Shown here piece after piece: positions 34,741 through 57,776 of a DNA stretch of 64,000 nt. Under the pieces are notes generated by a model. The model searched no databases and was not told where the DNA came from. It saw nothing but the letters and a program-made list of their open reading frames with translations. Each line of letters starts with the position of its first letter. The stretch's first letter is position 1. This stretch comes from Roseobacter sp. GAI101 (GTDB lineage: Bacteria; Pseudomonadota; Alphaproteobacteria; Rhodobacterales; Rhodobacteraceae): the NCBI RefSeq assembly GCF_000156335.1, contig NZ_DS999214.1, positions 148,883-212,882 on the forward strand, in the 5' to 3' direction. A program made the position numbers and the translations under genes.

Positions 34741-36186
34741 TCATTTCAATTTGTCCAATTGGTCCTGGTAAGCGCGTGCAAATTCCTTGGCAAACAACTC
34801 TTGGAAATCATTCTCGGCCTGGTCAGAAATTTCCGAATACATGGTTTCATAGATTTCCCAATACCGGGCTTTTCGGCTTTTCAGCATACCGCTTAGGTTG
34901 CTTTCATTGTTTATCTTGGTCTCTAGGACCGCCGGATCCAGTTTTTTCAGGATGCCCTTCAAGGCCGCTTCCATGCCGGTGATCACGGCCACCTCATGGG
35001 CTTTGATATCCTTCAAGGCTTCTGTGGTCGCATCGATCGCATCCAGATATCCTTGGGCCTTGGGGCGGACCATCGCTTCGATCGCCTGTTCAGGGCTGAT
35101 CGAGAATTTGAGCGGATTGTTCCCACCGATCTGGATCATCGTACGTTCGATCCGAAATTCGGATTTGAACGACGTGCGCGTCATCAGGATTTCACGCATG
35201 CCCTCGATCATGACACGCAACACCTTGCCCATCCGCACCATGGTGGCAGGCAATTCGGCGTCAGGCACCTCGACATCGTCGGCCCCCAGGGCTGCAAGGA
35301 AACCCCGCGCCGGCGCGACACCCACAACGCCGCTTGCCACTGCAACGGGCGCTTTGGCCTGAACCGCTGGCTGCACGGGTGCAGGGGCCGGCTGCAAGGT
35401 TGGTTCGTCCGGGATCCGCGTTGCAGGGGTGGGCGATGCAAACGGATTGCCGGTGCTGCCACCGGAATCCGCGCGCGGTTCCGGCGCGATGGGCGACAGG
35501 AAGTCATCATCCCAGTCGTCCGGAATAGCCGATCCGCCGGAAGACGGCCGCGCAGCACTGAAGTAGTCTTGGGATGCTGCGTTGTGCGCGCCCATGCTGG
35601 CCCCCTGCCCGGCATAGGGATCAGCCGCGGGCCCAAGCAAATCGTCATCGTCGCCGAGCGGCGGCAGCAGGCCATCGTCATCGGGTTCGTCCCTGTTCAC
35701 GACGGCCGGGCCTTTGGGGGCGACTTCACGCCCGCCCAGCAGGTCGTCAAGGAAATCACCCCCGTCACCCGGAGCGTTCATCAAATCAAAATCGCTCGGC
35801 GCGCCGGACGCCATTCCATGCGACACCTGCACATCTTCGACAGGGGCCGCGATCATGTCATCTTGGGAATTCGAGGCGATATTGACCAAAATTTCGTATG
35901 GCCCGACCGAAAGGATATCCCCGTCGTTCAAGGGGGTTGGCGTGCTTCCCAAGGCCAGCTTGCCATAGTTCAGAAACGTGCCGTTCGTCGAAAAGTCGAC
36001 GACGATGACATTGCCGTTATGGTCCTCGATGGCGCAGTGCCTTTTGGACAATTCTCGGTTGGGATCAGGCAGAACCAGATCATTTTCGTTGCCCCGCCCG
36101 ATCGTCAGGCTGGGACCTTGCATGTTGATTGGATCACCATTGCCGGGGATACTGCCCGTCGACTGAAACCTTAGTGTTACCGCCAT
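34741..36186 (-). CDS. tagH: T6SS FHA-domain protein TagH, copy 1
   Basis: A 481-residue protein. An N-terminal FHA domain (about 8-100) has IGRGNENDLVLPD, SKRH and STNGTF, the phosphothreonine-binding loops. A disordered acidic/Pro-rich middle contains FLDDLLGG (145-152), DDDDLLG (179-185) and DDDFLS (226-231), echoing the DD[IL]L repeats of the giant sheath protein. The C-terminus (about 290-481) is the conserved T6SS TagH domain. It probably reads phosphorylated TssL. A second TagH is encoded at 57777. Confidence 0.92.
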   Translation of the reverse strand: MAVTLRFQSTGSIPGNGDPINMQGPSLTIGRGNENDLVLPDPNRELSKRHCAIEDHNGNVIVVDFSTNGTFLNYGKLALGSTPTPLNDGDILSVGPYEILVNIASNSQDDMIAAPVEDVQVSHGMASGAPSDFDLMNAPGDGGDFLDDLLGGREVAPKGPAVVNRDEPDDDGLLPPLGDDDDLLGPAADPYAGQGASMGAHNAASQDYFSAARPSSGGSAIPDDWDDDFLSPIAPEPRADSGGSTGNPFASPTPATRIPDEPTLQPAPAPVQPAVQAKAPVAVASGVVGVAPARGFLAALGADDVEVPDAELPATMVRMGKVLRVMIEGMREILMTRTSFKSEFRIERTMIQIGGNNPLKFSISPEQAIEAMVRPKAQGYLDAIDATTEALKDIKAHEVAVITGMEAALKGILKKLDPAVLETKINNESNLSGMLKSRKARYWEIYETMYSEISDQAENDFQELFAKEFARAYQDQLDKLK

Positions 36187-36192
36187 CTGTAA

Positions 36193-36495
36193 TTAGCCAC
36201 CCGTCAATACCGTCGGTGCACCCGCAACGATTGCACCCCCCAACGAGCACATGTCACCAATGCGCGCCGCAGGCAACTTCTGGATCAACACCGTCGCCGA
36301 ACCTTTGGCGATGGGGTGTGGCGGAAAATTCGCAGCAGGCGGCGCAATCAGCCCAAGGCATAAATCTGTGACCCGGGCCGCCGGCATCTTGCAAACCAAT
36401 ACTGTAACGCAACAAGGCGGCATGATCGGCAAAGGGGATCCAAACGTGCAGGGTCCGGTGTGCATGTCCGCAACGCGTGCCTGAGGTGTTCCCAT
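36193..36495 (-). CDS. PAAR-domain spike tip protein
   Basis: A 100-residue PAAR protein made of repeated short segments (AARVTDLCLG, AARIGDMCSLGGAIVAGAPT) with cysteines and histidine suited to bind the metal at the spike tip. It caps VgrG and sharpens the T6SS needle. It has no effector extension. The ATG overlaps the TAA of the upstream DUF6931-like gene (TAATG). Confidence 0.9.
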   Translation of the reverse strand: MGTPQARVADMHTGPCTFGSPLPIMPPCCVTVLVCKMPAARVTDLCLGLIAPPAANFPPHPIAKGSATVLIQKLPAARIGDMCSLGGAIVAGAPTVLTGG

Positions 36496-37100
36496 TATGC
36501 ATCTCCTTTTTCGGGGGCCGTGCTGCGCAACTCTACCTTGCCATTGCCGCCGCGCGCAATATCGAGAGCCCGGTCAATGATAAGATTGAAACGCGTTTCA
36601 GGGTCGGGCCCCAGTTTCAATGTCTTGAGGTTGATGCCGAATGCACATGCGGCGACCACGCCGATCGGGGCGGGATGGTCTTTCATCTCGCCCGGTCCCA
36701 TGTTGCCCGGCGCATAAAACGCGGCCGTTGCACAAGGGGCGGCTTTGTCCCCTGACGATTCCGTTTCAAGCACCGTCTGCAAGCGCATGCGGATGTCGTC
36801 GGTTGGCTCAAACACCCATGCCTCGGCGGTGGTCAGACAGGGGCTTTTCCCGTCTGGCCCGACCAGTTCGCGACCGGCAATGCAGGCCCACCAGACGCAT
36901 TCACGCGGGGGCAATGACACGGACAACAGGCGGATCATGTCCACATGCTCCCCCATCTTTTCCAACTCGGCCAAAACCACCGGCACGGATGCGCTGGCAG
37001 GGGTCGAAAGCTCTGCTGTCAGCTTTGCATTCGCAGCCGCCAACAGCCGTGCCGCAGGCTGTTCCGGTATTTTCTTAAGATTGGAAAATCGTTCTGACAT
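36495..37100 (-). CDS. DUF6931-like T6SS-associated protein, copy 1
   Basis: A 201-residue protein of unknown function. The central segment LLSVSLPPRECVWWACIAGR and later GVVAACAFGINLK match the pattern of the DUF6931 family found in T6SS clusters, as far as I can recognise it. It lies between vgrG and PAAR, which suggests a role as adaptor or chaperone for the spike or its cargo; this is inference from position. ATG at 37100 is used; a TTG at 37112 would overlap the vgrG stop. A second copy is at 57146. Confidence 0.7.
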   Translation of the reverse strand: MSERFSNLKKIPEQPAARLLAAANAKLTAELSTPASASVPVVLAELEKMGEHVDMIRLLSVSLPPRECVWWACIAGRELVGPDGKSPCLTTAEAWVFEPTDDIRMRLQTVLETESSGDKAAPCATAAFYAPGNMGPGEMKDHPAPIGVVAACAFGINLKTLKLGPDPETRFNLIIDRALDIARGGNGKVELRSTAPEKGDA

Positions 37101-37108
37101 GTGCCCGC

Positions 37109-39226
37109 TCAATTGATCATGACCACGCCACCTTCCAGAGTCAGCATCCCGCTCCCTGAAACAGTGGTCGCAGGAGAAGACATTTCGGCGGTTGCCTTAC
37201 CTTCGACGGTGACCATGGTCCCGGAAATCTCGATCCCTGATTGGCTGATGGTAATGGAATTGCCCCCGACCGTAAGAGATATCTTTGTCGCGGCTGTGAT
37301 AATGACGGAACCTGCTGAAGTATCAAGGGTATAGTCCCCCATGGACACCGTTACGTCCTCGTTGCCCTTCGATACTTCCCGGGTAACATTCCCGGTGCTG
37401 ATCGTCTGGGTATAGTTTCCCGTCTTGATCGTCGTGGCAGTGTCGCCGGTGATCGTCTCGGTCGACTTGCCTTCGATCGTTTCCGTGTGATCGGTCTTGA
37501 TAAAGATGCTCTGATTGCCCGTCTCGACCTTAAAGATATGATCGCCGGTCTTTATGGTCTCGGTCTTGGTGTGATAAATCGTCTGCGTCAGATCACCAGG
37601 ATCCATCTTATCAAGGCCGATTTTAATTTCGGCATTGTTTTCGATCGTTTGAAAGTAATCTTTCTCCGAATGAAGCCGGATGAATTCAGCGTCCTTTTTG
37701 TCTTCGAAAACCAGCTCGTTATAGTTCTGCTCCCCGCCCGTCTTGGAGGAACGCGTCTTGATCCCCGTTTGGGTCATGTTCGCAGGCAGACCATAGGGTG
37801 GCATTGTATCGCCATTGTACAACATGCCGGTGCAGATCGGCCGGTCAGGGTCACCTTCTTCGAACTGGATGGCGACTTCCTGGCCGATACGCGGAATTGA
37901 AATCATACCCCAGGCTTTGCCGGTCCAGGGCATGACACACCGCACCCAACATGTGCTAAGTTCATTTTTCTTGCCGACGCGGTCCCAATAGAACTGCACT
38001 TTGATGCGCCCGTATTTATCGGTGTGGATCTCTTCGCCCGACGGACCGGTGACGATAGCAGTTTGCAGCCCCAAAAGTTTCGGCCATGGCGTCACTTGCG
38101 GTGCGCGAAACGGTTCGGTCTTGGGGATGACATCAAACACAACACGATAGGTGTCCTTGTTGTCCTCATCCACCGGGATCGTGCTGTCGAAAAGCGGCTT
38201 CTTGCTTTCCTGATCTTCGTAATCCGTTTCAATCTGCAAATGATGCACGGCGCGCGTAAGCAGATATTCCATGTTGTTATGTTTGCGCGGATGTTCTTTC
38301 AGCTTGAATGTCTGGCCGACGCCAATCGTACGGACGTTGCCGGCACCGCGTGACACCCTATGCTTTACCGCCTCCGCTTCCATTCTAACCTTGGTCAGAT
38401 GGTCCCCGGTCCCTGCGATCCGGCTGTGACCGGGATACCGGTAGTGTTCATATGATTTGTGGCTATGATCCCCTTTGGCGATGGCCTTGGCAGTCTTCTG
38501 ATCGGCCTTGGGGTTTTCAAAGTCATAGTCGTTCAGCGTTATCTTACCGGTTGTCACACCGGTGGCTTCGCTCCAGTCAAAGATATGATCGTCTCTGCGA
38601 CGGTATTTCGCTTCCTTGAAATGAAAGTCGATTTCCGATTTCCCGGGGGTCGCCTTGTGCGCGCTGATACTGTCGGCCAAAACCATCTTGAGCGTTTTGC
38701 CGTCCTGCACGAAATAGTAATAAATGCCTTCTTCTTCCATCAACCGGCAAATGAAGTCAAAGTCGGTTTCAGCGTATTGCACGCAATAGACACGTTTCTC
38801 GTATTTGGCGGTCGTCTTCTTTTCCACCATCGTCCAAAAGCCGTAGTCTCCCAGAACTTGCTGAATGATATCCAGGACCGTCTTGTCCTGAAAAATCCGG
38901 TTTTCCTGACGCCGTGTCAGAAACCAAAGCCAAGGGCGTGTTTCAGCAACGAAATGGGACAGCCCCTGATAAAGACCGACATATTCAACCGACGTGCACG
39001 TTCCCGTGAAAAAACGGTCTTTCTCGTCGGCGTCCTTGATACCAACGCAGATCGTCTTTCCAAGAATATCCTGAAGATCAAGCGCATCGTTGGAGGACAA
39101 GAACTCGATTGTTGTTTCCGTCAGAAAGCTAAGCCCCTCAACGACCCGAGCATTCTTTAGGTTCACCGGCTTGGAGGCGTAATCGCCCTCCATCCACACG
39201 GCCCTGTTCAATAGATCAATCGACAT
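37109..39226 (-). CDS. vgrG: T6SS spike protein VgrG (TssI)
   Basis: A 705-residue VgrG with gp27-like domain (about 1-370), gp5 OB fold (TDKYGRIKVQFYWDRVGKKN near 405) and a C-terminal beta-helix of short repeats with alternating Thr/Val, ending in TLEGGVVMIN. There is no extra effector domain after the needle. It forms the spike on the Hcp tube and carries the PAAR tip encoded downstream. It is preceded by a 97-residue unknown gene. Confidence 0.96.
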   Translation of the reverse strand: MSIDLLNRAVWMEGDYASKPVNLKNARVVEGLSFLTETTIEFLSSNDALDLQDILGKTICVGIKDADEKDRFFTGTCTSVEYVGLYQGLSHFVAETRPWLWFLTRRQENRIFQDKTVLDIIQQVLGDYGFWTMVEKKTTAKYEKRVYCVQYAETDFDFICRLMEEEGIYYYFVQDGKTLKMVLADSISAHKATPGKSEIDFHFKEAKYRRRDDHIFDWSEATGVTTGKITLNDYDFENPKADQKTAKAIAKGDHSHKSYEHYRYPGHSRIAGTGDHLTKVRMEAEAVKHRVSRGAGNVRTIGVGQTFKLKEHPRKHNNMEYLLTRAVHHLQIETDYEDQESKKPLFDSTIPVDEDNKDTYRVVFDVIPKTEPFRAPQVTPWPKLLGLQTAIVTGPSGEEIHTDKYGRIKVQFYWDRVGKKNELSTCWVRCVMPWTGKAWGMISIPRIGQEVAIQFEEGDPDRPICTGMLYNGDTMPPYGLPANMTQTGIKTRSSKTGGEQNYNELVFEDKKDAEFIRLHSEKDYFQTIENNAEIKIGLDKMDPGDLTQTIYHTKTETIKTGDHIFKVETGNQSIFIKTDHTETIEGKSTETITGDTATTIKTGNYTQTISTGNVTREVSKGNEDVTVSMGDYTLDTSAGSVIITAATKISLTVGGNSITISQSGIEISGTMVTVEGKATAEMSSPATTVSGSGMLTLEGGVVMIN

Positions 39227-39255: not shown

Positions 39256-39549
39256 CTACGCGTCCGTCTCAAGCAGACACTTTTCGTTGCGAAGGCGTTC
39301 AATGATTTCGGGGTGTATCGCCCAGCAACTTGAAACTGAAAAACCGTCGCCAATAATACGTCTGGCATCAAATAATGAATCAAAACTGACACACAGAACG
39401 GGTTTTGGAAAAACCCCGTCTGCGAGAAGCAGTTGGTTTAAATGGTCGTCACCTTTATACATGTAATATTTCTTTTTTTCGATAGCCAGCAAGATAATCT
39501 CCGGCTCGTCGTCGCGCTCCGGTTCTGGCGTATTGATTGTCCCGTCCAT
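39256..39549 (-). CDS. Hypothetical protein next to vgrG
   Basis: A 97-residue protein of no recognised family. It is mixed alpha/beta in appearance, with an acidic start, a central IILLAIEKKKYYMYKGDD segment and an FGVSS-like run around FSVSSCWAIHPEIIERL. Its ATG directly follows the TAG of the giant sheath-protein gene (TAGATG), so it is translated with it, and it ends 29 bp before vgrG. An adaptor or chaperone role for the spike or the fusion is possible but unproven. Confidence 0.65.
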   Translation of the reverse strand: MDGTINTPEPERDDEPEIILLAIEKKKYYMYKGDDHLNQLLLADGVFPKPVLCVSFDSLFDARRIIGDGFSVSSCWAIHPEIIERLRNEKCLLETDA

Positions 39550-42500
39550 CTATAATCCCTCCAGCAATGCAGCAAGATCGGCGTCCATGTCACCGCCGTC
39601 GTCATCGGTATCGTCGGCATCGAACCCGGCCAACAGATCATCAAGCGATGTATCGTCGTCGCCATCATCTGCTTGAACGCCGTCAGTTTCAGTGTCGGAA
39701 AGCAAATCGTCAAGAGATGTGTCATCCGCACCCGAGCCATCCTTGTCTTGTGCGACGGGGATATTCGCCTCGAGTTTGATGGTGCCCGCGCCTGGACGCG
39801 GCGATTGTGCCGGAACTTCGGCCTCCCAGGGGCCGGCGATGATGTCTCCGGCCAGCGACCGGAACGACCCGAGCCTGATCTCGTTTCGGCCTTTGACCCA
39901 AACCACCGGCATATACCCCCGGCCCAATGTCATCTGAGCAGCGTCGCTTGTCAGGTTGCGTTCGGTACAGGGCAGCGCGACCTGATCGCCATCCCGGTCC
40001 GTGACATAGTGGAACGGCAAATCGCCAAGCGACATCAACGAGCCGAGGTTCATCGCCTTGCCGTCTTTCTTGTGGGTTCCAGCCAACAGGATCGCGACAA
40101 GAACGACAGGGTTGGCCCAAAGCATGCCTTTCAGGCCTTCCTTCGACGTAAACTCTTCAAAGGAAAAAGGATAAATCGGTTCGGACTTTGCCCCATAGGG
40201 CAGGCGCAACAGGAAACGTGGCGACGAAAGCGCGATATATGCGGCTTCCGGCAGCCCCCGCAACGTATCCCAGGCTTCTGCAACCAACGGGTGCCGGTCC
40301 TCTTTTGCAGTCTCAAGATAGGTCGGTGTGATGGCTGAAAAGAACGGCGCATCGACATGCGCACCGATCTGACCGATCCGCGCCAGCAGTTCTGCGTGGG
40401 GTGGCGTTTCCTCGAATGTGTACAGGCCAAACAGCGCGGAAAATCCGCCTGCGCCTTCTTCGGGGTCCACCACGTCCGTGACCAGTTTGAACAGCCCGGA
40501 TTTGGAAAGATCTTCCTGCGCGGCCAAGTCAGCCGCCAGTTCTTCCGCAGAGACATCGTAGAGGACGATCTCCAGCGTGCTGTCGGTCTCGATGCGGCGT
40601 GCAAGCATGTCCAACGACCGCCATTGCGCCTCGATCGCTTGAAAGTCCGGATGGTGCAGCACCAATCGCATGGCCGAACTCAATGCCTCGTCGACGGCCT
40701 TTGTCATCTCGGCAGCGCCCGCATCCGGGGCCTTGACGATGTGAGGCCCCACAACCTGCGCAATCAGATCATCGGCAGGGCCTGACGGCGTGAGTGATCC
40801 CCCCGTGTCCCCGATCAAAGCCTGGAAATCGCTTAGCTTGAGGTTCACAGGGACAGACGTACTTGCCGACCGTTTCGGCAGCTTGATCGGTGTGGCGTGG
40901 TTTTCAGACCACGTTTTCAGTTGCGAGATCGTGCGATCGGCCATGGACCCCACGCCAAGTTGCTTGCGCAGTCCTGAAATCTCATCGAAGATGCCGACGT
41001 TGTCGTAAATCTCGTCCGGGTGCAGATCGTCAAGCTCTTTCAACTTGACCGCCACCCCGCTGCCGTCCTTGCCGATCTTGAGGTCAAGGGTCGTGCCGAA
41101 GCCTTCGATAATCTCGTCAATTGTATCGATATCCAGCGCAATGGGCGGACGGGCAGCCAACGCGTCCCCCGTCTCCATCAGTCCTTTTGCCGCACGACCG
41201 GTGAAATCACCGAAAACGGCCATGCGGAATTTCTTGCGGTTCAGGTCTGCCCGCTCAGGCCGCGGAGCCGTGATCACGCCGAAAGGCGATTGCTTTGCTA
41301 CGCGTGGTGCCGCATTTTTTCCGGCAGTATCATCGGCAACGGCCGCGGAAGGCGCGCCAAGATCGGTCAGCATATCATCCAGGTCATCGCCACCTGCATC
41401 TGCCGGTTCATCCAGCCCGCCCAAAAGAGCATCCAGATCGTCGGTTTCTTCGGTTGGCGTTTCATCGCCAATCCCTGCCAGAAGGTCATCCAGATCGTCA
41501 GCCCCTTCGGGTTCTTCCGGGGTGTCGATATCCCCCAATAGATCATCAAGGGACGTATCCTCGCTAGCGTCCTCGCTGGTGTCGATCCCACCAAGGATAT
41601 CGTCAAGATCGTCGGTTGCTTCCGCTTCCTCAGCCACATCCAAATCACCTAGGATATCATCAAGGGACGTATCCTCACTGGCGTCCTCTGTCGTGTCGAG
41701 GTCGCCAAGGATATCGTCAAGATCATCGGTGGCTCCCGCTTCCTCGGCCACGTCCAGATCGCCGAGGATATCATCGAGGGATGTATCCTCACTGGCGTCC
41801 TCGGTCGCGTCTAGGCCGCCAAGGATGTCGTCAAGATCGTCGGTTGCACCCGTTTCCTCGGCCAAATCCAGATCACCGAGGATATCATCAAGGGATGTAT
41901 CTTCGCTGGCGTCCTCGGTCGCGTCGAGACCGCCAAGGATGTCGTCAAGATCATCGCTATGCGTGTCTTCTGACGGGGGCGCATCAAGTCCGGACAGGAC
42001 GTCATCCAGATCGGTCTCCTGCTTGGGCTCCGGAGTTGGAGTTTCCAGACCGCCGAGGATATCGGACAAGCCATCATCCTCCGCTGCCGTTTCTACTTCT
42101 GCGATATCACCAAGAATATCATCCGTGTTTTCTTCAGCGGCTGGCGCTGGCGTGGGTGCATCCAGATTGGCAAGGATATCATCCGCAGTCTCACCCTCGA
42201 TCACGGCATCAATATGGGCGTCGGCCATGCCACCCAGAACGTCGTCAAAATCATTCGTCGATTCCGCGGTCGGCTCGGGTGCATCCAACCCGGCAAGAAT
42301 ATCATCGGCTGACGTGTCTGGGGGCGCATCCGCACTGTCGGGTGCCGAGATGTCACCTAGAATATCGTCCAGAGCCTCGGCATTCTCGTCTTCGTCTGAG
42401 GCTGCGGTATCAATGCCCGCAAGGATGTCATCGGTGAGGCCACCACCAGCGCTTTCATCGATTGCGACCGCTTCGATCCCTGCCAGGACGTCGGCCACAT

Positions 42501-43701
42501 CATCTGCCTCCTGTTCCTCGGGGGCATCCAGGCTGGCCAAAATATCATCGGTGTCGTTAGCAGCGACGGTATCTTCCTGACGGTCAAGACTGGCAAGAAT
42601 ATCCGACGTGCGATCCTGAGGTGCGACGTCAGGCATGGGCGTATCAGCCAACCCGGCCAGAACATCCCCTGTCGTATCCGTCTCTTGCAGGGGGGTGACG
42701 GGGGCGATGCCACTCAGGACGTCGTCAGCGGTATCTTCCGGTGCGGTGTCCTCGGGTGCCTCGTTCAGGGACCCCAGAATATCTGCGACGTCGTCTTGCG
42801 CGGGGGCATCTTCGACCTGGTGGATACCGGCAAGAATGTCACCGGAGGTGTCTTCCGGTGCCACGTCCTGGATACGTTCCAATCCGGACAAGACGGCTTC
42901 GGCTTCGTTCGGCGCGGGGGTATCGGTAGCCTCAGTCCGGGAAATTCCCGACAGGACAGTGTCAGCCGTATCTGTTTCAACTTGCTCGACGACATGTACC
43001 GCCCGCAAGGCTTCAAGAGCCGACGCCTGATCATCAACTGCGTGGGTTTCGGGTGGCGGCTGCAAGCTGCCCAAAACGTCGGACACGGATGTATCTTCGG
43101 CCCGTTCAACAGGTGCTTGCGCAGCCAAAGATGCGAGCGTGGCATCGGTCGTGTCTTCTTTTGGCGTTTCCGCTGGCAGCGCTGCGCGCAAGCTATCCAA
43201 GGCGGCGTCGACATCCGCCGACGCTTCCTTTGATCCGGTGACCGCAGCCAGCAGTGCAGGCTCGGAGAGCAGTTTTTCAATCAGCGTCTCGGCACCGGAT
43301 TTCCCGTCCATATAGGTGGTCAGATCAGACAACCTCCGCCTCGCCTCCAGAAGGGGGCGCAAGGCGTCAACCTTTTCGGCAATGGCTTCGGGCGTAAAAT
43401 CCTCCATCTTGGTAAAGGTCAGGTCGACGGCAAGGTTGCCTTCGCCCGTCAGCGTATTCGCAACGGAAAACTGCGCTTTGGGTGCAATGGCAGCCATCCG
43501 GTCGTTGAAATTATCGACATCAATTTCCAGAAACTTCCGGTCCGCCACGGGTGGCGTCGCGGACTTGCCCGACAGATCGGACACGACCCCCATGACGAAC
43601 GGCAATTGCACCTTCTTTTCAGCACCGTAAAGTTCAACATCATATTCGATCTGAACCCGCGGCGCGCGATTTCTGGCGATGAATTTTTGACTGCTACTCA
43701 C
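39550..43701 (-). CDS. Giant sheath-like protein: TssB domain, acidic repeats, TssB/TssC-like module
   Basis: A 1383-residue protein. Residues 1-155 are a TssB domain nearly identical in sequence to the separate TssB at 55112-55627. Residues about 185-790 are an acidic low-complexity region with about 30 DD[ILV]L-type motifs. Residues about 820-920 form a second TssB-like domain (KKFRMAVFGDFTGRAAKG), about 990-1290 a TssC-like sheath domain (PRFLLRLPYGAKSEPIYPF), and 1320-1383 an acidic tail with the same motifs. Canonical tssB and tssC also exist, so this is an extra sheath-related protein. Its start overlaps the ion-channel stop (ATGA). It could cap, tether or modify the sheath. Confidence 0.9.
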   Translation of the reverse strand: MSSSQKFIARNRAPRVQIEYDVELYGAEKKVQLPFVMGVVSDLSGKSATPPVADRKFLEIDVDNFNDRMAAIAPKAQFSVANTLTGEGNLAVDLTFTKMEDFTPEAIAEKVDALRPLLEARRRLSDLTTYMDGKSGAETLIEKLLSEPALLAAVTGSKEASADVDAALDSLRAALPAETPKEDTTDATLASLAAQAPVERAEDTSVSDVLGSLQPPPETHAVDDQASALEALRAVHVVEQVETDTADTVLSGISRTEATDTPAPNEAEAVLSGLERIQDVAPEDTSGDILAGIHQVEDAPAQDDVADILGSLNEAPEDTAPEDTADDVLSGIAPVTPLQETDTTGDVLAGLADTPMPDVAPQDRTSDILASLDRQEDTVAANDTDDILASLDAPEEQEADDVADVLAGIEAVAIDESAGGGLTDDILAGIDTAASDEDENAEALDDILGDISAPDSADAPPDTSADDILAGLDAPEPTAESTNDFDDVLGGMADAHIDAVIEGETADDILANLDAPTPAPAAEENTDDILGDIAEVETAAEDDGLSDILGGLETPTPEPKQETDLDDVLSGLDAPPSEDTHSDDLDDILGGLDATEDASEDTSLDDILGDLDLAEETGATDDLDDILGGLDATEDASEDTSLDDILGDLDVAEEAGATDDLDDILGDLDTTEDASEDTSLDDILGDLDVAEEAEATDDLDDILGGIDTSEDASEDTSLDDLLGDIDTPEEPEGADDLDDLLAGIGDETPTEETDDLDALLGGLDEPADAGGDDLDDMLTDLGAPSAAVADDTAGKNAAPRVAKQSPFGVITAPRPERADLNRKKFRMAVFGDFTGRAAKGLMETGDALAARPPIALDIDTIDEIIEGFGTTLDLKIGKDGSGVAVKLKELDDLHPDEIYDNVGIFDEISGLRKQLGVGSMADRTISQLKTWSENHATPIKLPKRSASTSVPVNLKLSDFQALIGDTGGSLTPSGPADDLIAQVVGPHIVKAPDAGAAEMTKAVDEALSSAMRLVLHHPDFQAIEAQWRSLDMLARRIETDSTLEIVLYDVSAEELAADLAAQEDLSKSGLFKLVTDVVDPEEGAGGFSALFGLYTFEETPPHAELLARIGQIGAHVDAPFFSAITPTYLETAKEDRHPLVAEAWDTLRGLPEAAYIALSSPRFLLRLPYGAKSEPIYPFSFEEFTSKEGLKGMLWANPVVLVAILLAGTHKKDGKAMNLGSLMSLGDLPFHYVTDRDGDQVALPCTERNLTSDAAQMTLGRGYMPVVWVKGRNEIRLGSFRSLAGDIIAGPWEAEVPAQSPRPGAGTIKLEANIPVAQDKDGSGADDTSLDDLLSDTETDGVQADDGDDDTSLDDLLAGFDADDTDDDGGDMDADLAALLEGL
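41500..41955 (-). repeat. Four tandem 114-bp units inside the acidic linker
   Basis: Residues 583-734 of the giant sheath protein are four tandem 38-residue units beginning DDLDDILGG and containing EDASEDTSLDD. At DNA level this is a 114-bp period. The units differ at scattered bases, so this is an older expansion. Copy number may vary between strains. Confidence 0.85.
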
Positions 43702-44567
43702 GATTTACCCTCACGTTCGGCACGCAACTCGTCGCGAAGGGCGCGGATCTCTTCGTGAAGGGAAAGCACCTGAGTTGAAACCTCATCTGTTTCTTCGCGC
43801 ACCAACTCGCGCAACTTTTCGAACTCGGCTTCCGTTTCGTCCTCCACGGCGGATTGCATCGTGTTAACCAGCAAACCGATGAAAAGGTTGAGCACCGAAA
43901 ACGAGGTGATGACAATGAACGGTACAAAAAAGACCCATGCCGTCGGATAGACTTCCATGACGGGTCGCACGATCCCCATGGACCAGGATTCAAGGGTCAT
44001 GATCTGGAACAGCGAATAGAGTGACCGCCCAAGCGTGCCGAACCATTCGTCGAACATCACGCCGTACATGATTGTCGCCATCACGCCAAAGACGTAAAAC
44101 ACGATCGAGATCATGACGATGACGGCACCCATACCCGGCAATGCGTCCAATAGCGCCTGAACGACGGCACGCATCTGCGGGATAACGGACAGCAGGCGCA
44201 GCGCGCGGATCACGCGCAGGCCACGCAGCGCCGACAGCCCCGCCGTCTGCGGCAGCAAGCCGACACCGACAACAAGCAGGTCGAATATATTCCACGAATT
44301 GCGGAAGAAGCTTAGCCGATAGGCGTATAGCTTTAGGACCAGTTCGATGACAAAAATGCTCAAGACGACCTTGTCGATCGAGACAAGAAGATCGCCGATA
44401 TGGGCCTGCGCCCATTTTGACGTGCCCACGCCAAGCGTGATGGCGTTGAAAATGATCAGCGCCAGAATGCCCAGATGAACGCGCGGCTGTTCCAGGAACT
44501 GGCGCAGCCGTTCCCGATGCCCTGTCGCTTCATCAGATGCACTTAAGTCTTTCGTGGTGTCCGTCAT
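43698..44567 (-). CDS. Bacterial voltage-gated sodium channel (NaChBac/BacNav type)
   Basis: A 289-residue six-segment ion channel. S4 (about 111-127) has arginines every third residue (R115, R118, R121, R124), the voltage sensor. The pore loop has the selectivity filter TLESWS (191-196), almost identical to the TLESWAS of NaChBac and diagnostic for sodium selectivity. S6 (about 213-238) and a C-terminal coiled coil (about 240-285) for tetramer assembly follow. Its stop overlaps the start of the giant sheath gene by 4 bp (ATGA), and it lies 27 bp after the lysine-rich protein gene. The link to T6SS is contextual but close. Confidence 0.93.
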   Translation of the reverse strand: MTDTTKDLSASDEATGHRERLRQFLEQPRVHLGILALIIFNAITLGVGTSKWAQAHIGDLLVSIDKVVLSIFVIELVLKLYAYRLSFFRNSWNIFDLLVVGVGLLPQTAGLSALRGLRVIRALRLLSVIPQMRAVVQALLDALPGMGAVIVMISIVFYVFGVMATIMYGVMFDEWFGTLGRSLYSLFQIMTLESWSMGIVRPVMEVYPTAWVFFVPFIVITSFSVLNLFIGLLVNTMQSAVEDETEAEFEKLRELVREETDEVSTQVLSLHEEIRALRDELRAEREGKS

Positions 44568-44594: not shown

Positions 44595-45539
44595 CTACTT
44601 GAGATCTTTTTCGACTTTCTTGAATTCAACCTGGAGGCTTTTCATTGCCTTGACGGCACTGTCGGCCGTGCCCTGAAGGGTGCTCATCGCTCCAAACTTC
44701 TTGGCGTAGGCCTTTGCGTCGCCGACTTCCATCTGACCCTTTTTCAGGTCCTTGGCATATGCATCCAACTCTTTTTCCAGGGTATCCATATCATTGGACA
44801 GCTTTTCCAAGGGGCCGTGCACTTTCTTGTCCCGGATCTTGCCACTGAATGCGTCCAATGACCCGATGTCGTTGCCTTTAAGCTTCTTGCCGGAATTCAA
44901 CAAAAACTTGGCCACAGAGTCAGCTTTCTTGCCCTCTCTCTCAAGGTTCTTGATTGCCTTTTCGATCTCAGCTTGCGCGGCAGAAAATTGTTTCCCGATC
45001 TTGGTCTTGTCCCCTTTTTCCAAGGCCTTCACGCAGCCATCGGCAGTACCCATGGCAATCGCTATGAAATCCTTGAACACCGACCCGATGTCGAGAGAGT
45101 TGATTTCCGACATCGCCTTCTTGCCGACTGCCAGACCAGCCTTGGCTTCGCCTTTACCCGAACTCAGTTCCTCCAAGGCGTCCGAACATTTTTCCGAAAT
45201 TTCGGAGTTCGCATTCTTCAGCGCTTGTTCCAGCGCCGTGATGATCTTGTTGTGTTCCTTCGGCGACTTGGCTTTTTCACTGTCCTTCATGATGGCCCCG
45301 GCACGCACCGCCAGCAGCTTCAGTTCCGGTCGCACCAGCCCGGCCATCGCAGATTTCAACTTGGGCTCGGTCCACTTTTTGGGGTTAAGCTCCAGGCTTT
45401 CCTCGTAGACGATCTTCTTGCCGAATATCTTCTTGGCCTTTGGTTCGGACTCCAGCCATTTTATGACGTCTTTCTTCATCTCTACATAAGGGCTGATTTC
45501 CAACTTGGCCTTCATCTTCTTATTTCCGTCGGCAACCAT
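44595..45539 (-). CDS. Lysine-rich helical protein of unknown function in T6SS locus
   Basis: A 314-residue soluble protein with no signal peptide or membrane segment and no family I recognise. It is strongly basic in many segments and predicted by eye to be mostly helical with coiled-coil stretches (AAQAEIEKAIKNLEREGKKA; LSNDMDTLEKELDAYAKDLK). GGAGGA precedes the ATG. It is the first gene after a 457-bp gap that holds a sigma70-like promoter, and it precedes the sodium channel and the acidic giant sheath protein. It might be a structural partner of that acidic protein or a T6SS substrate. Confidence 0.75.
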   Translation of the reverse strand: MVADGNKKMKAKLEISPYVEMKKDVIKWLESEPKAKKIFGKKIVYEESLELNPKKWTEPKLKSAMAGLVRPELKLLAVRAGAIMKDSEKAKSPKEHNKIITALEQALKNANSEISEKCSDALEELSSGKGEAKAGLAVGKKAMSEINSLDIGSVFKDFIAIAMGTADGCVKALEKGDKTKIGKQFSAAQAEIEKAIKNLEREGKKADSVAKFLLNSGKKLKGNDIGSLDAFSGKIRDKKVHGPLEKLSNDMDTLEKELDAYAKDLKKGQMEVGDAKAYAKKFGAMSTLQGTADSAVKAMKSLQVEFKKVEKDLK

Positions 45540-45996: not shown

Positions 45997-48732
45997 TCAT
46001 TCGAAACGATAGGTGAATTCGTGATCCGTGGCATCGATGGCGACTTTCTCGATCGTGCCGCCTTCCATCATTCGGCGCAGGAACTCGGCCGAGATGTCGG
46101 GAAGCATCGTGTTGGTCACGATCGCGTCGATCATGCGGCCACCGCTTTCCAGTTCCTGGCAGCGGTTCACGATCTCTTCCACGACAGCATCCGAGTATTC
46201 GAACGGGACGCCATGGGCCGCTTCCACCCGCTTTTTGATGCGGTTAAGTTGCAGCACCGTGATCTTGCCGATCATATCAGGGCTAAGAGGGTAATAGGGG
46301 ATCGCAACCAGACGCCCCAGCAACGCGGGCGGGAACACCTTGAGCAAGGGATCGCGCAGCGCCTTGGCCATGCCTTCGGGGTCGGGCAACAGTTCCGGGT
46401 CCGCGCACATGTCCATGATCAGATCAGTACCCGCGTTCGACGTCAGCAGGATCAAGGTGTTCTTGAAGTCGATGACGCGGCCCTCGCCGTCCTCCATCAC
46501 GCCCTTGTCGAAGACCTGAAAAAAGATCTCGTGCACATCGGGGTGGGCTTTTTCGACCTCGTCCAACAGAACGACAGAATAGGGTTTGCGCCGCACTGCT
46601 TCGGTCAGAACACCCCCTTCGCCGTAGCCGACATAGCCCGGAGGCGCGCCTTTCAACGAGGATACGGTATGGGCCTCTTGATACTCGGACATGTTGATCG
46701 TGATGACGTTCTGTTCGCCCCCGTACAGCACTTCGGCCAAGGCTAGCGCCGTTTCGGTCTTACCGACGCCGGACGTCCCCGCCAGCATGAACACACCGAT
46801 AGGTTTGGACGGATTGTCCAGACCGGCGCGGCTGGTCTGGATGCGTTTGGCGATCATCTTCATCGCGTGGTCCTGACCGATGACGCGCTTGGCCAGATGC
46901 TCCTCAAGGTTCAGAACAGTCTCAAGCTCATCTTTCAACATCCGGCCAACGGGAATGCCCGTCCAATCACCAACGACGGACGCAACGGCCTGATGGTCAA
47001 CAATGGGCATGATCAACGGGCTATCACCCTGCTGTGCTTCCAACGCGGCGTTCTTGGCCTTTAGTTCGGCCATGACAGTTTCCCGCTCTTCATCGCTCAA
47101 CCCTGCTTCGATGCCTTCTTGCTGCGCGACTTCATTCGCTGCGGCACCTTCGGGCGTATGGGTCTGCTCTAGCGGCTGCCCACCGGCACGCAGCTTGGCG
47201 CGCAGGTCGATGATTTCGCCAACGAGGGTCTTTTCAATCTCCCAATTGGCTTTCAAACCGACAAGGCGTTCCTTCTCGGCGGCCATCGCTTCCTGGACAT
47301 TGGCACGGCGTTCCCCCACGTCATAGCCTGCGGTTTCGTCCCGCCCGATAATCTCAAGCTCGGTTGCGAGCGATTCAATGCGGCGTTGGCTGTCGTCCAC
47401 CTGCGCTGGCACTGCGTGCTGGCTGACGGCAACGCGGGCACAGGCGGTATCAAGCAGGCTGACTGACTTGTCCGGCAACTGCCGCGCAGGGATGTAACGC
47501 GCCGACAGCGTGACCGCCGCTTCGATACCTTCATCAAGAACTTGCACCTTATGGTGTTTTTCCAGCATCGACGCGATGCCGCGCATCATCAGGACAGCCT
47601 TGGGAATATCAGGCTCTTCGACATGAACCACTTGGAAACGCCGGGTCAAGGCGGGGTCCTTTTCGATGTATTTCTTGTATTCGGCCCAAGTGGTGGCCCC
47701 GATCGTACGCAGCGTCCCGCGTGCAAGGGCGGGTTTGAGCAGGTTTGCCGCGTCACCCGTGCCTGCGGCCCCCCCTGCCCCGACAAGCGTATGGGTTTCG
47801 TCCACGAACATGACGATGGGCGTGGTCGATCCCTGAACCTCGTCAATGACCTGACGCAGGCGGTTTTCAAATTCGCCTTTCATCGACGCGCCCGCCTGCA
47901 ACAATCCGACATCCAGCACCAGCAGGCGCACATCGCGCAGCGCAGGCGGCACGTCGCCGCGCGCGATGCGCAGGGCGAAACCTTCGACCACGGCGGTCTT
48001 GCCGACACCTGCCTCTCCGGTCAGGATGGGGTTGTTTTGGCGACGTCGCATCAGAACATCCACGATCTGGCGGATTTCTTCGTCACGGCCAACAATCGGG
48101 TCAATCTCTCCGTTGCGGGCCTGTTCGGTCAGGTCGGTGCAGAACTGATCCAACGCCTCTTGTTTGCCCATCTGCGACGGCGACATGGCACCGCTCGCCT
48201 CGCCTGGCTCGGCACCGCCACCGGTGACAGACCCGTCCTGCGGGCGCATCGCATCTTCGGGCGATCCATCCGTGATGGCATGGAAATCATCTGCAAGCGC
48301 GTCCGCCTTGATCCCTGCCAAGGTCGGCGAGATCGTCATCAGAATGTTCTTGAGGTTCGGGGTCTCCAACATGCCCAGGATCAAATGGCCCGTGCGCACC
48401 TGGTTTGACGAATACAACAGCGACCCCCAGACCCAAGCCCGCTCCATCACATCCTCAAGATGGCTGGAAAGGTCACTGACCGACGACGCCCCGCGCGGCA
48501 GCTTGTCCAGCGCCGAGGTCATCTCGGTCGCGATCTTGCCCGCGTCCAGATTGAAATGTTGGACGATGCGGTGGATATCGCTGTCTTGATTATTAAGGAT
48601 TTGATGCATCCAGTGGACAACTTCGACATAGGGGTTACCGCGCATCTTGCAGAACACGGTGGCCCCTTCGATTGCTTTGAACCCAAGGCTGTTGAGTTTC
48701 CCGAACAGTGCGACACGGCTAATTTCTGTCAT
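45997..48732 (-). CDS. clpV: T6SS sheath-disassembly ATPase ClpV (TssH)
   Basis: A 911-residue AAA+ protein. An N-terminal Clp-N domain (about 1-155), two ATPase modules with Walker A motifs GEAGVGKT (239-246) and GTSGVGKT (about 620), Walker B elements, and a middle coiled coil are all present. ClpV unfolds contracted TssB/TssC sheath for reuse by binding a TssC N-terminal helix. It follows tssG by 13 bp and ends the first T6SS block. Confidence 0.96.
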
Positions 48733-48745
48733 TGTATATGTCCCT

Positions 48746-49783
48746 TCAAATTATTGGTGCGGCATGGCTCTGAAAATTGGGTTCCAGAAAGAGATCATCC
48801 GCGTCTTTTGTTATTTTTTTGTCGCCGATCCAGCCGGTTTGCCCCAGCCTTACGGTTTCTCCCAGTTTCGCTTTCGGTATGTCTTGGGCGCGCAGCACCA
48901 GATTGACGTCCCAATCCAGCGCATCCCCGACATAGTTGCGCACAATCGCCCGCAGCCGTCCAAGCGAACTGCCCCCCGGCAAGAGCCGCTGGTAATCCTC
49001 ATAACTCAGGGGTCCGATGCGCAACCGGAATTTGGCGGACCGCGTCCACACGCGATCCCCGATCGACGCGGTGCGCCCCAACTGTGCAGGGGCTCCCATC
49101 TGCCAGCGGTCCCCTTTTTCAAGCTCTAGCCAACAGCCCACGAATTCCTGCACCTCGACACGAGCCCCGAAGAACGCTTGCAGGATAGATTGCAGACCGC
49201 TGGCGTTTTTCGGGCCTTGGGCAAGCAAACCGGCAAAGTGACGTTTTGCCAGATCGGGCAATTCGTCTTTGTTGCGCAGATGCGCACCGTGATAGCCGGC
49301 AATCGCGGCGACCTTGTTCTGGAGTTCGTCGTTGTCGGAACGATCGAAACTTGCCACCGGCTGACCAGACCGCCAGGCACGGTAGAACAAGGTGGTCATC
49401 CGGTGCGTCAACATATCTGCAAAGCGCACCAATGTCGGGTCGCGGTGGTTGCGCATCCGCTCGCGGGCGTATTCCGTCAAGTGCAGCGGCAAAGGCCCAT
49501 TCGGGCCGAACAGACCGAAAAAGCGATTGGTCAAGCGCCCGGGTTTGCCATTCTTTGGCGACGTAAATTCAGCCAATGTCGAGGGCGGGAATTTCAGCTC
49601 GGCTTCCTGGCCGTGACGGATGGCATCTTCGCGGGGGCGACGTGCATCACCGATACGCGGTGCATCGGGAAACGCAGCTTCGAGCACGCGGAAAGCGTGA
49701 AAGATATGATATTGCTCCGGAGCGTCCGCCAACCTCTCAAGGGGGGTTAGAGGATCCTCCCCAGACCGGTTTCCGGACGCCAT
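48746..49783 (-). CDS. tssG: T6SS baseplate protein TssG
   Basis: A 345-residue TssG with the family segments YHIFHAFRVLEAAFPD, RFFGLFGPNGPLPLHLTEYA and a C-terminal LGRTASIGDRVWTRSAKFRL. It forms the baseplate wedge with TssE, TssF and TssK. It overlaps the end of tssF by 37 bp, a common arrangement. Confidence 0.94.
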   Translation of the reverse strand: MASGNRSGEDPLTPLERLADAPEQYHIFHAFRVLEAAFPDAPRIGDARRPREDAIRHGQEAELKFPPSTLAEFTSPKNGKPGRLTNRFFGLFGPNGPLPLHLTEYARERMRNHRDPTLVRFADMLTHRMTTLFYRAWRSGQPVASFDRSDNDELQNKVAAIAGYHGAHLRNKDELPDLAKRHFAGLLAQGPKNASGLQSILQAFFGARVEVQEFVGCWLELEKGDRWQMGAPAQLGRTASIGDRVWTRSAKFRLRIGPLSYEDYQRLLPGGSSLGRLRAIVRNYVGDALDWDVNLVLRAQDIPKAKLGETVRLGQTGWIGDKKITKDADDLFLEPNFQSHAAPII

Positions 49784-51624
49784 CGGGTAATTTCTCCGCG
49801 TTGTTGGGTGGCAAGCACCGTTTCAGTAAAACTGTTGATGGAAACATATTTTCGAAAAAATCGTTCTAATACGGCACCAAGCGCATAGGCGCTGGTCCCT
49901 TCAAAAAAGCTTTCGTCAAAGGTAATCGAAATCTCGAGCCCACGCACCGCGGTCGACAACACCTCGTCTGCCATGCGCCGGACGATGGGCCGCGTGTGTA
50001 CAGTGTTAAGCCCCTCAAGCTGCTTCGCGAGGACCTTGTTTCCCGAAGGCGTATAGATACCGATAAGTTCGCGCAAAGCAGCGGCGCTGTCTTTCGCGTT
50101 ATTGTCCGCAATACTCAGGTAATTCAGGCTGAGATGGGAAATCAGCCGCCAGGCCGTGTCGCCTTGGGCCAAAGTCTGACGCGGGCGTGTCGGACCAACG
50201 GGCGTCTTGATATGGGCCACCGGACCCCCGACAGGCAGGTGAAAGACGTCGTTGCCACCGGTGGGCAGCAAAAGGGGAAGGTCGCGATTTGTGACCATCG
50301 CCTGTATCGCCAACTGGTCAAGGTTGGGATCATAGGGGGCCTGATTTGAATCGACCAGCGACAGATGAATTTCCGACCCCAGATAGGACGTGCGAACCCC
50401 CTTGAGCCGCTCTTTCTCGGACCGCTGACGCATCTTGCGGGTTTGCGTATAGTAGGCGGCATGCGTGTCCCCCGCAGCGGTCAGATCCGTCGCAGAATAA
50501 AACGGTCTGAATGGCACATCCTTTTCGCCATCCGCAGAAACCCCAGTGACGCTCTCCAACGCATAGATTTCATAGTCGAGCGGTGCGGTGCGGTCCGCGA
50601 CGACATGGTGGTCAACCTTCGAGTTGGTCACATGAACCCGGTCGCAGCGTTTGTGGAACAGGTTGATTGCAGGCACCGCGTTCAACGTAAAGGCCTGTGG
50701 CGTCACGCCGGGTGCCACATCAGGATCCCCGCCGCTGAGCAGGATGTAGATATCGACATCAGACCCCTTGCAGCGCGACAGCGCCATCGACAGCCCCTTG
50801 AGCTCCACAAAGTGGAACCTTTCGGGCATCGCAAAGTATTCCTGAAGCAACCTGTAGCCATCAAAGCTGCGCTGTGGCGTCGGCAAAAGCGCCTCTTCAG
50901 GCTCGTAGCCCCTTGGGATGACACCGCTGTTGGGCAGTTCTGATATCCAGTCGGCCCGCCGGTCCGTCGACCGCCCCACAAGGCCGGTGACCTGGGTGCT
51001 CAACAATTCATGCAAGGCCCAGTTCTTGCCCTCCTGACCGTTCAGGAACAACACGAGACTGTCCATGGACAGTTCGGAAATCGGCAACCCGCCGTGCCGG
51101 TTCAACCGCAACCGGATGCCGGCGCGTGCCTCGGTGTCACGCGATACACCAGCAGCGACCAGCTCTCCTCGACCATCGATATATTCGGCTTCGGTGATCG
51201 TGATCGGCCACAGGTTTACGTCAGCCGCAGTCCGGAAAACGCAGGCCGTGTTATCGTCTTCGCCCAAGGCGCTGCGCAATTCGGAATGACGCGGGATGGT
51301 ATATCCGTCCGCAAGCGCCGCGTTCTGCATGTCAGGTTCAAAGCTCGCGATCATCATGGACGGCGACGGGCACAGATAGTGGGGATAGACAATTTCCAGC
51401 AGATGCGACGTTAGGGCCGGATACTGCAATTCCAGCTCAAGCTGGACACGGGCAGACAGAAAAGCGACGCCTTCAAGCAATCGCTCAACATAGGGGTCGA
51501 CGACTTCGACGCCGTCCATGCCCAATCGCGCGGCGATCTTGGGGTAGGCCTGCGCAAACTCGGCCCCCATGTCGCGCATGTATGCCAATTCGCCTTCGTA
51601 GTGTTTTAAGATCCGGGTATCCAT
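49747..51624 (-). CDS. tssF: T6SS baseplate protein TssF
   Basis: A 625-residue TssF starting with the family motif MDTRILKHYEGELAYMRDMG and QAYPKIAARLGMDGVEVVDP. It makes up the core of the baseplate wedge with TssG. It begins 6 bases after the tssE stop and overlaps tssG at the 3' end. Confidence 0.95.
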   Translation of the reverse strand: MDTRILKHYEGELAYMRDMGAEFAQAYPKIAARLGMDGVEVVDPYVERLLEGVAFLSARVQLELELQYPALTSHLLEIVYPHYLCPSPSMMIASFEPDMQNAALADGYTIPRHSELRSALGEDDNTACVFRTAADVNLWPITITEAEYIDGRGELVAAGVSRDTEARAGIRLRLNRHGGLPISELSMDSLVLFLNGQEGKNWALHELLSTQVTGLVGRSTDRRADWISELPNSGVIPRGYEPEEALLPTPQRSFDGYRLLQEYFAMPERFHFVELKGLSMALSRCKGSDVDIYILLSGGDPDVAPGVTPQAFTLNAVPAINLFHKRCDRVHVTNSKVDHHVVADRTAPLDYEIYALESVTGVSADGEKDVPFRPFYSATDLTAAGDTHAAYYTQTRKMRQRSEKERLKGVRTSYLGSEIHLSLVDSNQAPYDPNLDQLAIQAMVTNRDLPLLLPTGGNDVFHLPVGGPVAHIKTPVGPTRPRQTLAQGDTAWRLISHLSLNYLSIADNNAKDSAAALRELIGIYTPSGNKVLAKQLEGLNTVHTRPIVRRMADEVLSTAVRGLEISITFDESFFEGTSAYALGAVLERFFRKYVSINSFTETVLATQQRGEITRWRPETGLGRIL

Positions 51625-51630
51625 GAATGT

Positions 51631-52128
51631 CTAGGAAACTCTTTCCAGCTGAAGCTCGCCCGTGGTCACATCCACCTGGGTCCGCAAGTATAATTCAATC
51701 GGCATCGGCTGCGCCCACATATCCGCCCGAATATCAAAGGAAACGACCGATCGCCGTTCGTCCTGGCCCGTGCGCAATTCCACATCTAATGATCCGGGGT
51801 GAATGCGCGGCTCGAAAACCTGAACGGCACTGCGTATCGACTTCCGGATCATTTCCGCCCTTTCGGCTGTCGAATAATCGCCTGAAACGCTTTGAACGCC
51901 ATAGTTCAACGTCGATGCCGCAATATTTGGATAAAGGTCGGCATCGATCTGTGAATTGCCATTTTCAGTGTTCAACAGCCACGACAGATCGCGCTGGATG
52001 ATGTCGCGCAACTGGCGCAGGTCAATCACGCGGGTCTCGCGACGTTCCTTCAAATCTGATGGCTCATGATCCGTCAGCCTGTCCAGAAGAGAGGGCTGCA
52101 AGCGCTCGGCAATCATCTTATCGGACAT
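51631..52128 (-). CDS. tssE: T6SS baseplate protein TssE (gp25-like)
   Basis: A 165-residue gp25-like protein: LQPSLLDRLTDHEP near the start and RRETRVIDLRQLRDIIQRDL then STLNYGVQSVSGDYST in the core. TssE starts sheath polymerisation at the baseplate. The ATG at 52128 is 2 bases after the tagJ stop; an upstream in-frame extension is a shadow of tagJ. Confidence 0.94.
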   Translation of the reverse strand: MSDKMIAERLQPSLLDRLTDHEPSDLKERRETRVIDLRQLRDIIQRDLSWLLNTENGNSQIDADLYPNIAASTLNYGVQSVSGDYSTAERAEMIRKSIRSAVQVFEPRIHPGSLDVELRTGQDERRSVVSFDIRADMWAQPMPIELYLRTQVDVTTGELQLERVS

Positions 52129-52130
52129 GA

Positions 52131-52952: not shown

Positions 52953-52983
52953 GGTCAATCTCCTGTTTGGGCATAGGGCAAGC

Positions 52984-53013
52984 CTGAACAAGCCCCTTAA
53001 GAGGCTTGTTCAG
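52984..53013 (-). terminator. Hairpin after hcp
   Basis: A perfect 11-bp stem, CTGAACAAGCC (52984-52994) with GGCTTGTTCAG (53003-53013), and an 8-base loop between the hcp stop and tagJ. No T-run follows, so it probably attenuates or protects the hcp message, letting Hcp be made in excess. Confidence 0.6.
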
Positions 53014-57727: not shown

Positions 57728-57776
57728 TTTAGCGGAGCGACCAACCCACTTAACCGGCAAAGGGCAGTCGTTTGAT

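What the first reader, a model, noticed from the sequence alone, without database searches (positions are those of the whole stretch)
43698..44567. Voltage-gated sodium channel gene embedded in a T6SS operon
The NaChBac-type channel (S4 arginines every third residue, filter TLESWS) lies between the Lys-rich protein gene and the giant sheath gene, with a 4-bp ATGA overlap to the latter. This suggests membrane potential or sodium entry is tied to T6SS assembly or firing, or that the channel protects the cell from ion flux during secretion.
Basis: partly seen in the sequence, partly recalled or inferred. Interest (0 to 1): 0.85.

Follow-up and report, generated by a model that had tools for sequence, protein, structure and literature searches.

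The report
Sodium channel wired into injection machine
Marine bacteria of the roseobacter group carry a nerve-type voltage-gated sodium channel gene inside the operon for a spring-loaded protein injector (type VI secretion system), next to an odd giant sheath gene, and the two genes are usually inherited together, which suggests that this injector has its own electrical sensor or ion valve.

Summary
Window 43698-44567 (minus strand) encodes a 289-aa bacterial Nav channel (filter TLESWSM, four S4 arginines) between ClpV plus a Lys-rich ORF and a 1383-aa sheath-like gene; the overlap is GTGA, not ATGA. It is no strain quirk. In 58 genus genomes, 20 have a T6SS sheath gene: 9 of 9 with the giant gene have the channel, 0 of 11 without it do. 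In 394 family genomes, 36 have this channel type, 40 the giant's core, 35 both (Fisher p 1.6e-43). In plasmids the same 22 records hold both. The 59 channels sampled form one clade (SH-aLRT 99), keep filter and S4, and show dN/dS 0.03-0.09 in nine pairs. The giant is the published TssCL; ten literature searches showed no report of the channel beside it. Exceptions: five family genomes have TssCL without channel, one (still in a T6SS operon) the reverse. So the channel is very probably a dedicated but dispensable accessory of TssCL-type T6SS. That it senses depolarisation to time assembly or firing is inference.

The parts
43698..44567 (-). voltage-gated Na+ channel gene, 289 aa (P0001)
43698..43701 (-). 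4-bp stop/start overlap GTGA of channel and giant gene
39550..43701 (-). giant sheath-like gene, 1383 aa, = TssCL of PMC9515649: TssB-like domain, acidic repeats, B'C' core, acidic tail
39823..41286 (-). B'C' core of the giant: single-chain sheath-protomer fold without the last TssC domain
44595..45539 (-). Lys-rich helical ORF314 in a variable slot between ClpV and channel
45997..48732 (-). ClpV/TssH
   Evidence: homologue annotated tssH
48746..49783 (-). TssG
49747..51624 (-). TssF
51631..52275 (-). TssE (ORF as listed; true start probably at an internal codon, since the homologous part is about 164 aa)
   Evidence: homologue annotated tssE
52131..52991 (-). ImpE/TagJ
53040..53558 (-). Hcp
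53615..55108 (-). TssC (VipB), with its VipB_2 domain
55112..55627 (-). TssB (VipA)
55692..56723 (-). TssA-like (ImpA_N)
39256..39549 (-). orf97, follows the giant in a subset of loci
37109..39226 (-). VgrG
36495..37112 (-). DUF6931 protein
36193..36495 (-). PAAR protein
34741..36186 (-). FHA / TagH
33376..34716 (-). TssK
31927..33336 (-). TssL (DotU) with OmpA domain
28346..31930 (-). TssM (IcmF)
27678..28349 (-). TagF
26968..27711 (-). PP2C phosphatase (PppA-like)

Best explanation
The gene encodes an inner-membrane voltage-gated Na+ channel that is a dedicated accessory part of one T6SS subtype (H1-like, TssCL-bearing). Shown by sequence: it shares the operon with, and is directly coupled to, the giant sheath-like protein TssCL; it is mostly gained and lost with it; it is kept under purifying selection with filter and voltage sensor intact. 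Inferred: it is closed at the resting potential and opens on local depolarisation, for instance when an attacker breaches the inner membrane. The Na+ influx or a movement of the channel's cytoplasmic tail is then read by TssCL and/or the Fha-kinase-phosphatase switch of this T6SS, and so times sheath assembly, firing or recycling. TssCL would act at the sheath: its TssB-like domain could enter the ordinary sheath beside TssC, while its single-chain B'C' head, which lacks TssC's last domain, would cap or mark it. The dedicated-accessory part is about 0.85 likely; the depolarisation-sensing part about 0.4.
For: Genus: channel in 9 of 9 giant-bearing and 0 of 11 giant-less T6SS genomes. Family: 35 genomes with both, 1 channel-only, 5 giant-only, 353 neither, Fisher p 1.6e-43. 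Plasmids: the same 22 records hold both. Start/stop spacing from 14-bp overlap to 8-bp gap in 48 of 56 loci. One clade, SH-aLRT 99. Filter and four S4 Arg in 59 of 59 rows. dN/dS 0.027-0.092 in nine pairs. TagF, PP2C, FHA in the operon and a Ser/Thr kinase ORF on the same contig, about 19 kb from TssA; the P. aeruginosa H1-T6SS is switched on by membrane attack through such a pathway (introduction and discussion passages of PMC11323562).
Against: TssCL occurs without the channel (G515, G613, G626, G700, G754; L149, L154, L155, L156), and once the channel occurs in a T6SS operon without TssCL (G600), so neither strictly needs the other. Channel and B'C' distances correlate no better (0.82) than channel and TssK (0.88) or ClpV (0.82), so there is no sign of pair-specific co-evolution beyond common inheritance. 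The 52 stand-alone channels have the same filter, so nothing in the pore is special. No current, binding or phenotype was measured.
Confidence: 0.5

Rival explanations
1. Ion homeostasis: the channel lets Na+ in when firing or incoming attack disturbs potential or cytoplasmic pH and so feeds Na+/H+ antiporters, as proposed for Bacillus Nav channels. It supports T6SS-active cells but does not signal to the machine.
For: Abstract of PMC4225499: Na+ entry through Bacillus Nav serves pH homeostasis. The genome already keeps a stand-alone Nav, so such cells do use Na+ entry. Most hosts named are marine or saline.
Against: A general role would not require placement in the T6SS operon or absence from genus T6SS clusters without TssCL. 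Opening deepens depolarisation (inference).
Confidence: 0.2
2. Membrane tether: the channel's job is to anchor TssCL, or the T6SS tail, at the inner membrane; conduction is incidental.
For: Direct gene coupling to TssCL; T6SS-clade residues V241 and E242 lie just after S6, where the cytoplasmic tail begins (placement inferred from the alignment).
Against: Filter and S4 are unchanged in 59 of 59 rows, which a pure tether would not need. TssCL also occurs without the channel.
Confidence: 0.13
3. Hitch-hiking: the channel entered an ancestral TssCL cluster and was carried along with horizontal transfer of whole clusters without a role in secretion.
For: Clusters move: 22 plasmid records, and the window's channel groups with Tateyamaria copies rather than with its genus. 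Channel distances follow the backbone.
Against: Purifying selection as strong as on T6SS structural genes and retention between the same neighbours in 56 of 63 loci, while the slot just upstream turns over.
Confidence: 0.1
4. Secreted effector or effector partner: the channel is delivered to prey, or guards against a neighbouring cargo toxin.
For: Ion-pore T6SS effectors are reported: Ssp6 (PMC6889166) and Tse4 (PMC12169545), both seen only as listing and start of abstract. A variable Lys-rich cargo slot lies beside the channel.
Against: The channel is conserved while cargo is variable. 16 of 54 loci have a channel and no cargo; L149, L154, L156 and G613 have cargo and no channel. A voltage-gated channel would be closed in an energised prey (inference).
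Confidence: 0.05

Closest known systems
Bacterial voltage-gated sodium channels (BacNav: NavMs, NavAb, NaChBac)
   Same: Ion_trans domain, S4 arginine ladder, TLESWSM filter; 52 stand-alone relatives from the genus and class share the filter.
   Different: A separate clade, so far seen only in T6SS operons, with near-private residues (Q131, A148, T236, V241, E242 and others). No T6SS-linked BacNav was found in print.
TssCL-type T6SS of roseobacters (PMC9515649; passages and section 12 read)
   Same: Same giant protein (two VipA, one VipB domain) beside ordinary TssB and TssC; same accessory genes; H1-like.
   Different: The words 'channel' and 'ion transport' do not occur in its main text; its figures were not seen, and genes of no known T6SS role are drawn there as grey 'other'.
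P. aeruginosa H1-T6SS with threonine phosphorylation pathway
   Same: TagJ, FHA, PP2C and TagF in the operon and a kinase on the same contig; the paper puts these TssBC nearest to H1.
   Different: Adds channel and TssCL. No TagQRST-like gene is annotated in the about 37-41 kb read around two plasmid clusters (those gene tables are incomplete).

Membership tests
BacNav voltage-gated sodium channels | single-domain Ion_trans protein | tested here: met
   PF00520 E 2.3e-38 over residues 31-243
BacNav voltage-gated sodium channels | S4 with Arg at every third position | tested here: met
   four Arg in 59 of 59 rows
BacNav voltage-gated sodium channels | LESW-type selectivity filter | tested here: met
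   TLESWSM in 59 of 59 rows
BacNav voltage-gated sodium channels | voltage-gated Na+ current as a tetramer | not testable with these tools
   needs electrophysiology
T6SS, TssCL subtype | core genes TssA-C, E-G, K-M, Hcp, VgrG, ClpV in one cluster | tested here: met
   TssE by homology to an annotated gene
T6SS, TssCL subtype | giant protein with two VipA and one VipB domain beside normal TssB and TssC | tested here: met
   two VipA stretches and VipB
T6SS, TssCL subtype | TssCL working as part of the sheath | not testable with these tools
   fold only
Antibacterial T6SS effector | secreted, variable, with a linked immunity gene | tested here: inconclusive
   the channel is conserved and occurs without a cargo ORF in 16 of 54 loci; secretion not testable

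The most novel reading that the evidence does not exclude
A bacterial form of excitation-contraction coupling: a voltage-gated sodium channel is the electrical trigger of a contractile injection machine. Depolarisation of the attacked cell opens the channel, and the signal passes to the giant sheath protein TssCL to start or time the T6SS.
Probability: 0.2. Interest if true: 0.95.

Novelty: new variant of a known kind. Interest (0 to 1): 0.75.

Why it matters
Bacterial voltage-gated sodium channels are the structural models for nerve channels, yet their job in the cell is known in few cases (Bacillus pH homeostasis, abstract; motility and chemotaxis, a reference title). A channel clade tied to one secretion machine gives a concrete, testable job. 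As far as my searches reach it would be the first T6SS with its own ion channel; it offers a way in which a T6SS could sense injury, and it gives TssCL, so far without known function, a partner.

Tried and rejected
Strain-specific accident: rejected. BacNav linked to T6SS in general: not seen. In the class sample (385 genomes) the 14 genomes other than the window's that show both a channel hit at E <= 1e-60 and a sheath hit at E <= 1e-10 have them on different contigs (10) or, on one contig, over 500 kb apart (4: G123, G188, G418, G435) (lists compared by eye; drafts and weaker sheath genes limit this). Three lower-identity plasmid channels read as controls, of 17 such records, are not near T6SS genes. 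Recent copy of the genome's own stand-alone channel: not supported by the tree (quick method, which warns of long branches). Cargo-immunity pairing: not supported.

Cargo as alpha-pore-forming toxin: no reliable Pfam match; the ORF314 model (pLDDT 86.0, pTM 0.55) has no PDB match at E <= 0.001; XaxA, ClyA and AhlC appear only at E 0.33-1.2 among unrelated helical proteins. Undecided. ClpV-binding-like motif in the TssCL repeats: L[DE][DE][IL][LI] is enriched in the window copy (10 against 0.15 in shuffles) and G015 (6 against 0.25) but not in the five others tested; dropped. Acidic linker as the needed link to the channel: not supported, since L123 and L130 and six family genomes (G560, G656, G681, G682, G760, G765; B'C' 24-86 bp after the channel) have the channel before a giant without a long linker.

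Limits: the cut E <= 1e-104 was chosen after stand-alone channels reached 6e-102; weaker hits were not listed. The five giant-only genomes were checked by reading the DNA. For 31 of the 36 family channels the operon context rests on coordinates against B'C'; five were read. The survey sets overlap (species genomes, their contigs and plasmids), so counts are not independent samples; L134, L137, L140 and L141 are genus genomes again, and L140 and the G023 row of the tree are one sequence. ORF starts are mechanical, so in seven loci an apparent longer overlap (35-349 bp) is a start artefact or unresolved. An earlier count said that ClpV is followed by VgrG in four giant-less genomes; it was seen only in G067 and G022.

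Full report
OBSERVATION. The ORF at 43698-44567 lies on the minus strand, 289 aa, ATG start. It is an ion channel of the bacterial Nav kind: Ion_trans E 2.3e-38, nearest solved chains bacterial 'Ion transport protein' entries (5hvx 259 bits). S4 reads RGLRVIRALR and the filter TLESWSM. It sits in a T6SS operon that reads, on the minus strand, TssA, TssB, TssC, Hcp, ImpE/TagJ, TssE, TssF, TssG, ClpV, a Lys-rich ORF, the channel, a 1383-aa sheath-like gene, orf97, VgrG, DUF6931, PAAR, FHA, TssK, TssL-OmpA, TssM, TagF, PP2C (TssE by homology to an annotated gene). The overlap with the giant gene is GTGA, not ATGA. The genome has one more, stand-alone channel at 47% identity.

RECURRENT AND SPECIFIC. 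Of 58 genus genomes, 20 have a TssC-type sheath gene and 9 of these the giant. In all 9 the channel lies directly upstream of the giant, and no gene lies between them (the giants of G029 and G033 are cut by contig ends). In the 11 T6SS genomes without the giant only the stand-alone type of channel was found (seven, four); where the next gene could be read in a like backbone (G067, G022), ClpV is followed directly by VgrG.

In named genomes a scan with the giant's B'C' core gave 78 loci. Of 63 with readable upstream DNA, 56 have the channel immediately upstream; 48 of these lie between a 14-bp overlap and an 8-bp gap. Seven lack it: L149 and L156 (Rhizobium), L154 (Rhodobacter), L155 (Tateyamaria) and the distant L171-L173. 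In 394 family genomes from 393 genera the channel type was found in 36, the B'C' core in 40, both in 35 (Fisher p 1.6e-43). Of the 35, 31 have both on one contig and strand with B'C' 24-3464 bp downstream; in the other four the channel's contig ends within the giant, right after the channel. The one channel without a giant (G600) is still in a T6SS operon, between a 398-aa ORF and orf97-VgrG; five giants (G515, G613, G626, G700, G754) have no channel. Among 72,556 plasmid records 22 have a channel at 66.9% identity or more and the same 22 have B'C'; a 23rd (Eleftheria, 36%) has B'C' only, and 17 records with more distant channels have none. Two of the 22 were read with their annotation and show the same operon.

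OWN CLADE, LOOKS FUNCTIONAL. On a tree of 59 T6SS-linked and 52 other channels the T6SS rows form one group (SH-aLRT 99, one change of label). The genus's stand-alone channels are far from it, so this is no recent copy; the quick tree warns of long branches, so the sister group is unsure. All 59 rows keep TLESWSM and four S4 arginines; the 52 others have TLESWSM too. Pairwise dN/dS is 0.027-0.092 in nine chosen close pairs (ClpV 0.009-0.113, VgrG 0.042-0.119; own Nei-Gojobori script). Over 52 loci channel distances correlate with TssK (0.88), ClpV (0.82), B'C' (0.82) and VgrG (0.67): common inheritance, not a tighter link to B'C'. Near-private residues of the T6SS clade include Q131, A148, T236, V241 and E242.

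THE PARTNER. The giant is TssCL of PMC9515649 (passages and section 12 read), described there as a TssB-TssC fusion of roseobacters and a few other Alphaproteobacteria. Here B'C' also appears in two Rhizobium genomes and, as about 500-aa proteins at 28-34% identity, in records of Pseudomonadales, Planctomycetota and Bryobacterales. The N-terminal TssB-like domain is 69-81% identical to the same genome's TssB in five genomes, degenerate (33-39%) in two and absent in two. An acidic linker follows; in the window copy its repeats are mostly 19-21 aa. B'C' is predicted with good confidence (35 rows, pLDDT 86.2, pTM 0.88) as one chain that matches single-chain sheath proteins of phages and injection systems from residue 13-21 to 488 (Z 12.5-17.1) and TssC up to about its residue 397 (5n8n_B Z 29.1, rmsd 3.7, 301 residues). 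The VipB_2 domain of the ordinary TssC was not found in the giant. A protomer without it fits a cap or adaptor better than a repeating sheath unit (inference).

MECHANISM. Shown by sequence: linkage, common operon, mostly common gain and loss, purifying selection, intact sensor and filter. Inferred: the channel opens on depolarisation and informs the T6SS. The inference rests on the H1-like setting with TagF, PP2C and FHA, a kinase ORF on the same contig, and the known activation of the H1-T6SS by membrane attack (passages of PMC11323562). Homeostasis, tethering and hitch-hiking remain open.

PRIOR WORK. Ten searches of the held library listed no paper that, by title, abstract start or the passages I opened, reports a BacNav in a T6SS cluster; several returned far more papers than were listed. 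Word searches inside PMC9515649, PMC4337385, PMC9113992, PMC13098142, PMC3910543, PMC7989816 and PMC3910702 found no such channel; 'ion transport' occurs in four of them only as a gene category. Figures and supplements were not seen, and most subscription papers are not held.

VERDICT. A real, recurrent and apparently unreported pairing of a voltage-gated sodium channel with one T6SS subtype; the function is open but readily testable.

Noticed in passing
44595-45539; slot between ClpV and channel in L099-L174: A variable slot holds Lys-rich (13-19% K) helical ORFs of about 290-530 aa in 38 of 54 loci, in five sequence groups, some as pairs with an ORF314-like second gene; possible cargo or effectors. 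The ORF314 fold has no significant PDB match.
   Followed up: partly
41286-43701 (N-terminal part of the giant): The giant's TssB-like domain stays 69-81% identical to the genome's own TssB in five genomes but is degenerate in two and absent in two, as if co-assembly with TssC is kept in some and lost in others.
   Followed up: partly
39823-41286: B'C' resembles a single-chain sheath protomer without TssC's last domain, and relatives of about 500 aa occur in T6SS clusters of other phyla.
   Followed up: partly
57146-59411 (+): A second DUF6931 gene and a second FHA / T6SS_FHA_C gene lie divergently beside TssA.
   Followed up: no
59472-63959 (-): A 1495-aa repetitive protein with no Pfam match; its repeats look adhesin- or autotransporter-like by eye.
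   Followed up: no
39256-39549 (-): orf97 follows the giant in many loci and also the lone channel of G600, so it belongs to the module; no Pfam match.
   Followed up: no
G000:C8:224461-225219 (outside the window): A Ser/Thr kinase ORF (701-aa frame) lies on the same contig, about 19 kb from TssA: a PpkA candidate.
   Followed up: no
L177 3375-6373; L178 1311-4278: ExbB/ExbD/ExbD and DUF4384 genes lie divergently upstream of TssA in the Leisingera and Phaeobacter plasmid clusters.
   Followed up: no
Parasedimentitalea marina plasmid NZ_CP033223.1 (H50, H86): The channel match covers only 61% of the query, with a second place in the record, and the giant match spans two annotated features; this cluster may be decaying.
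   Followed up: no
43698-44567, residues 131, 148, 236, 241, 242: Positions near-invariant in the T6SS channels but different in stand-alone ones; 241-242 follow S6, where the cytoplasmic tail begins.
   Followed up: no
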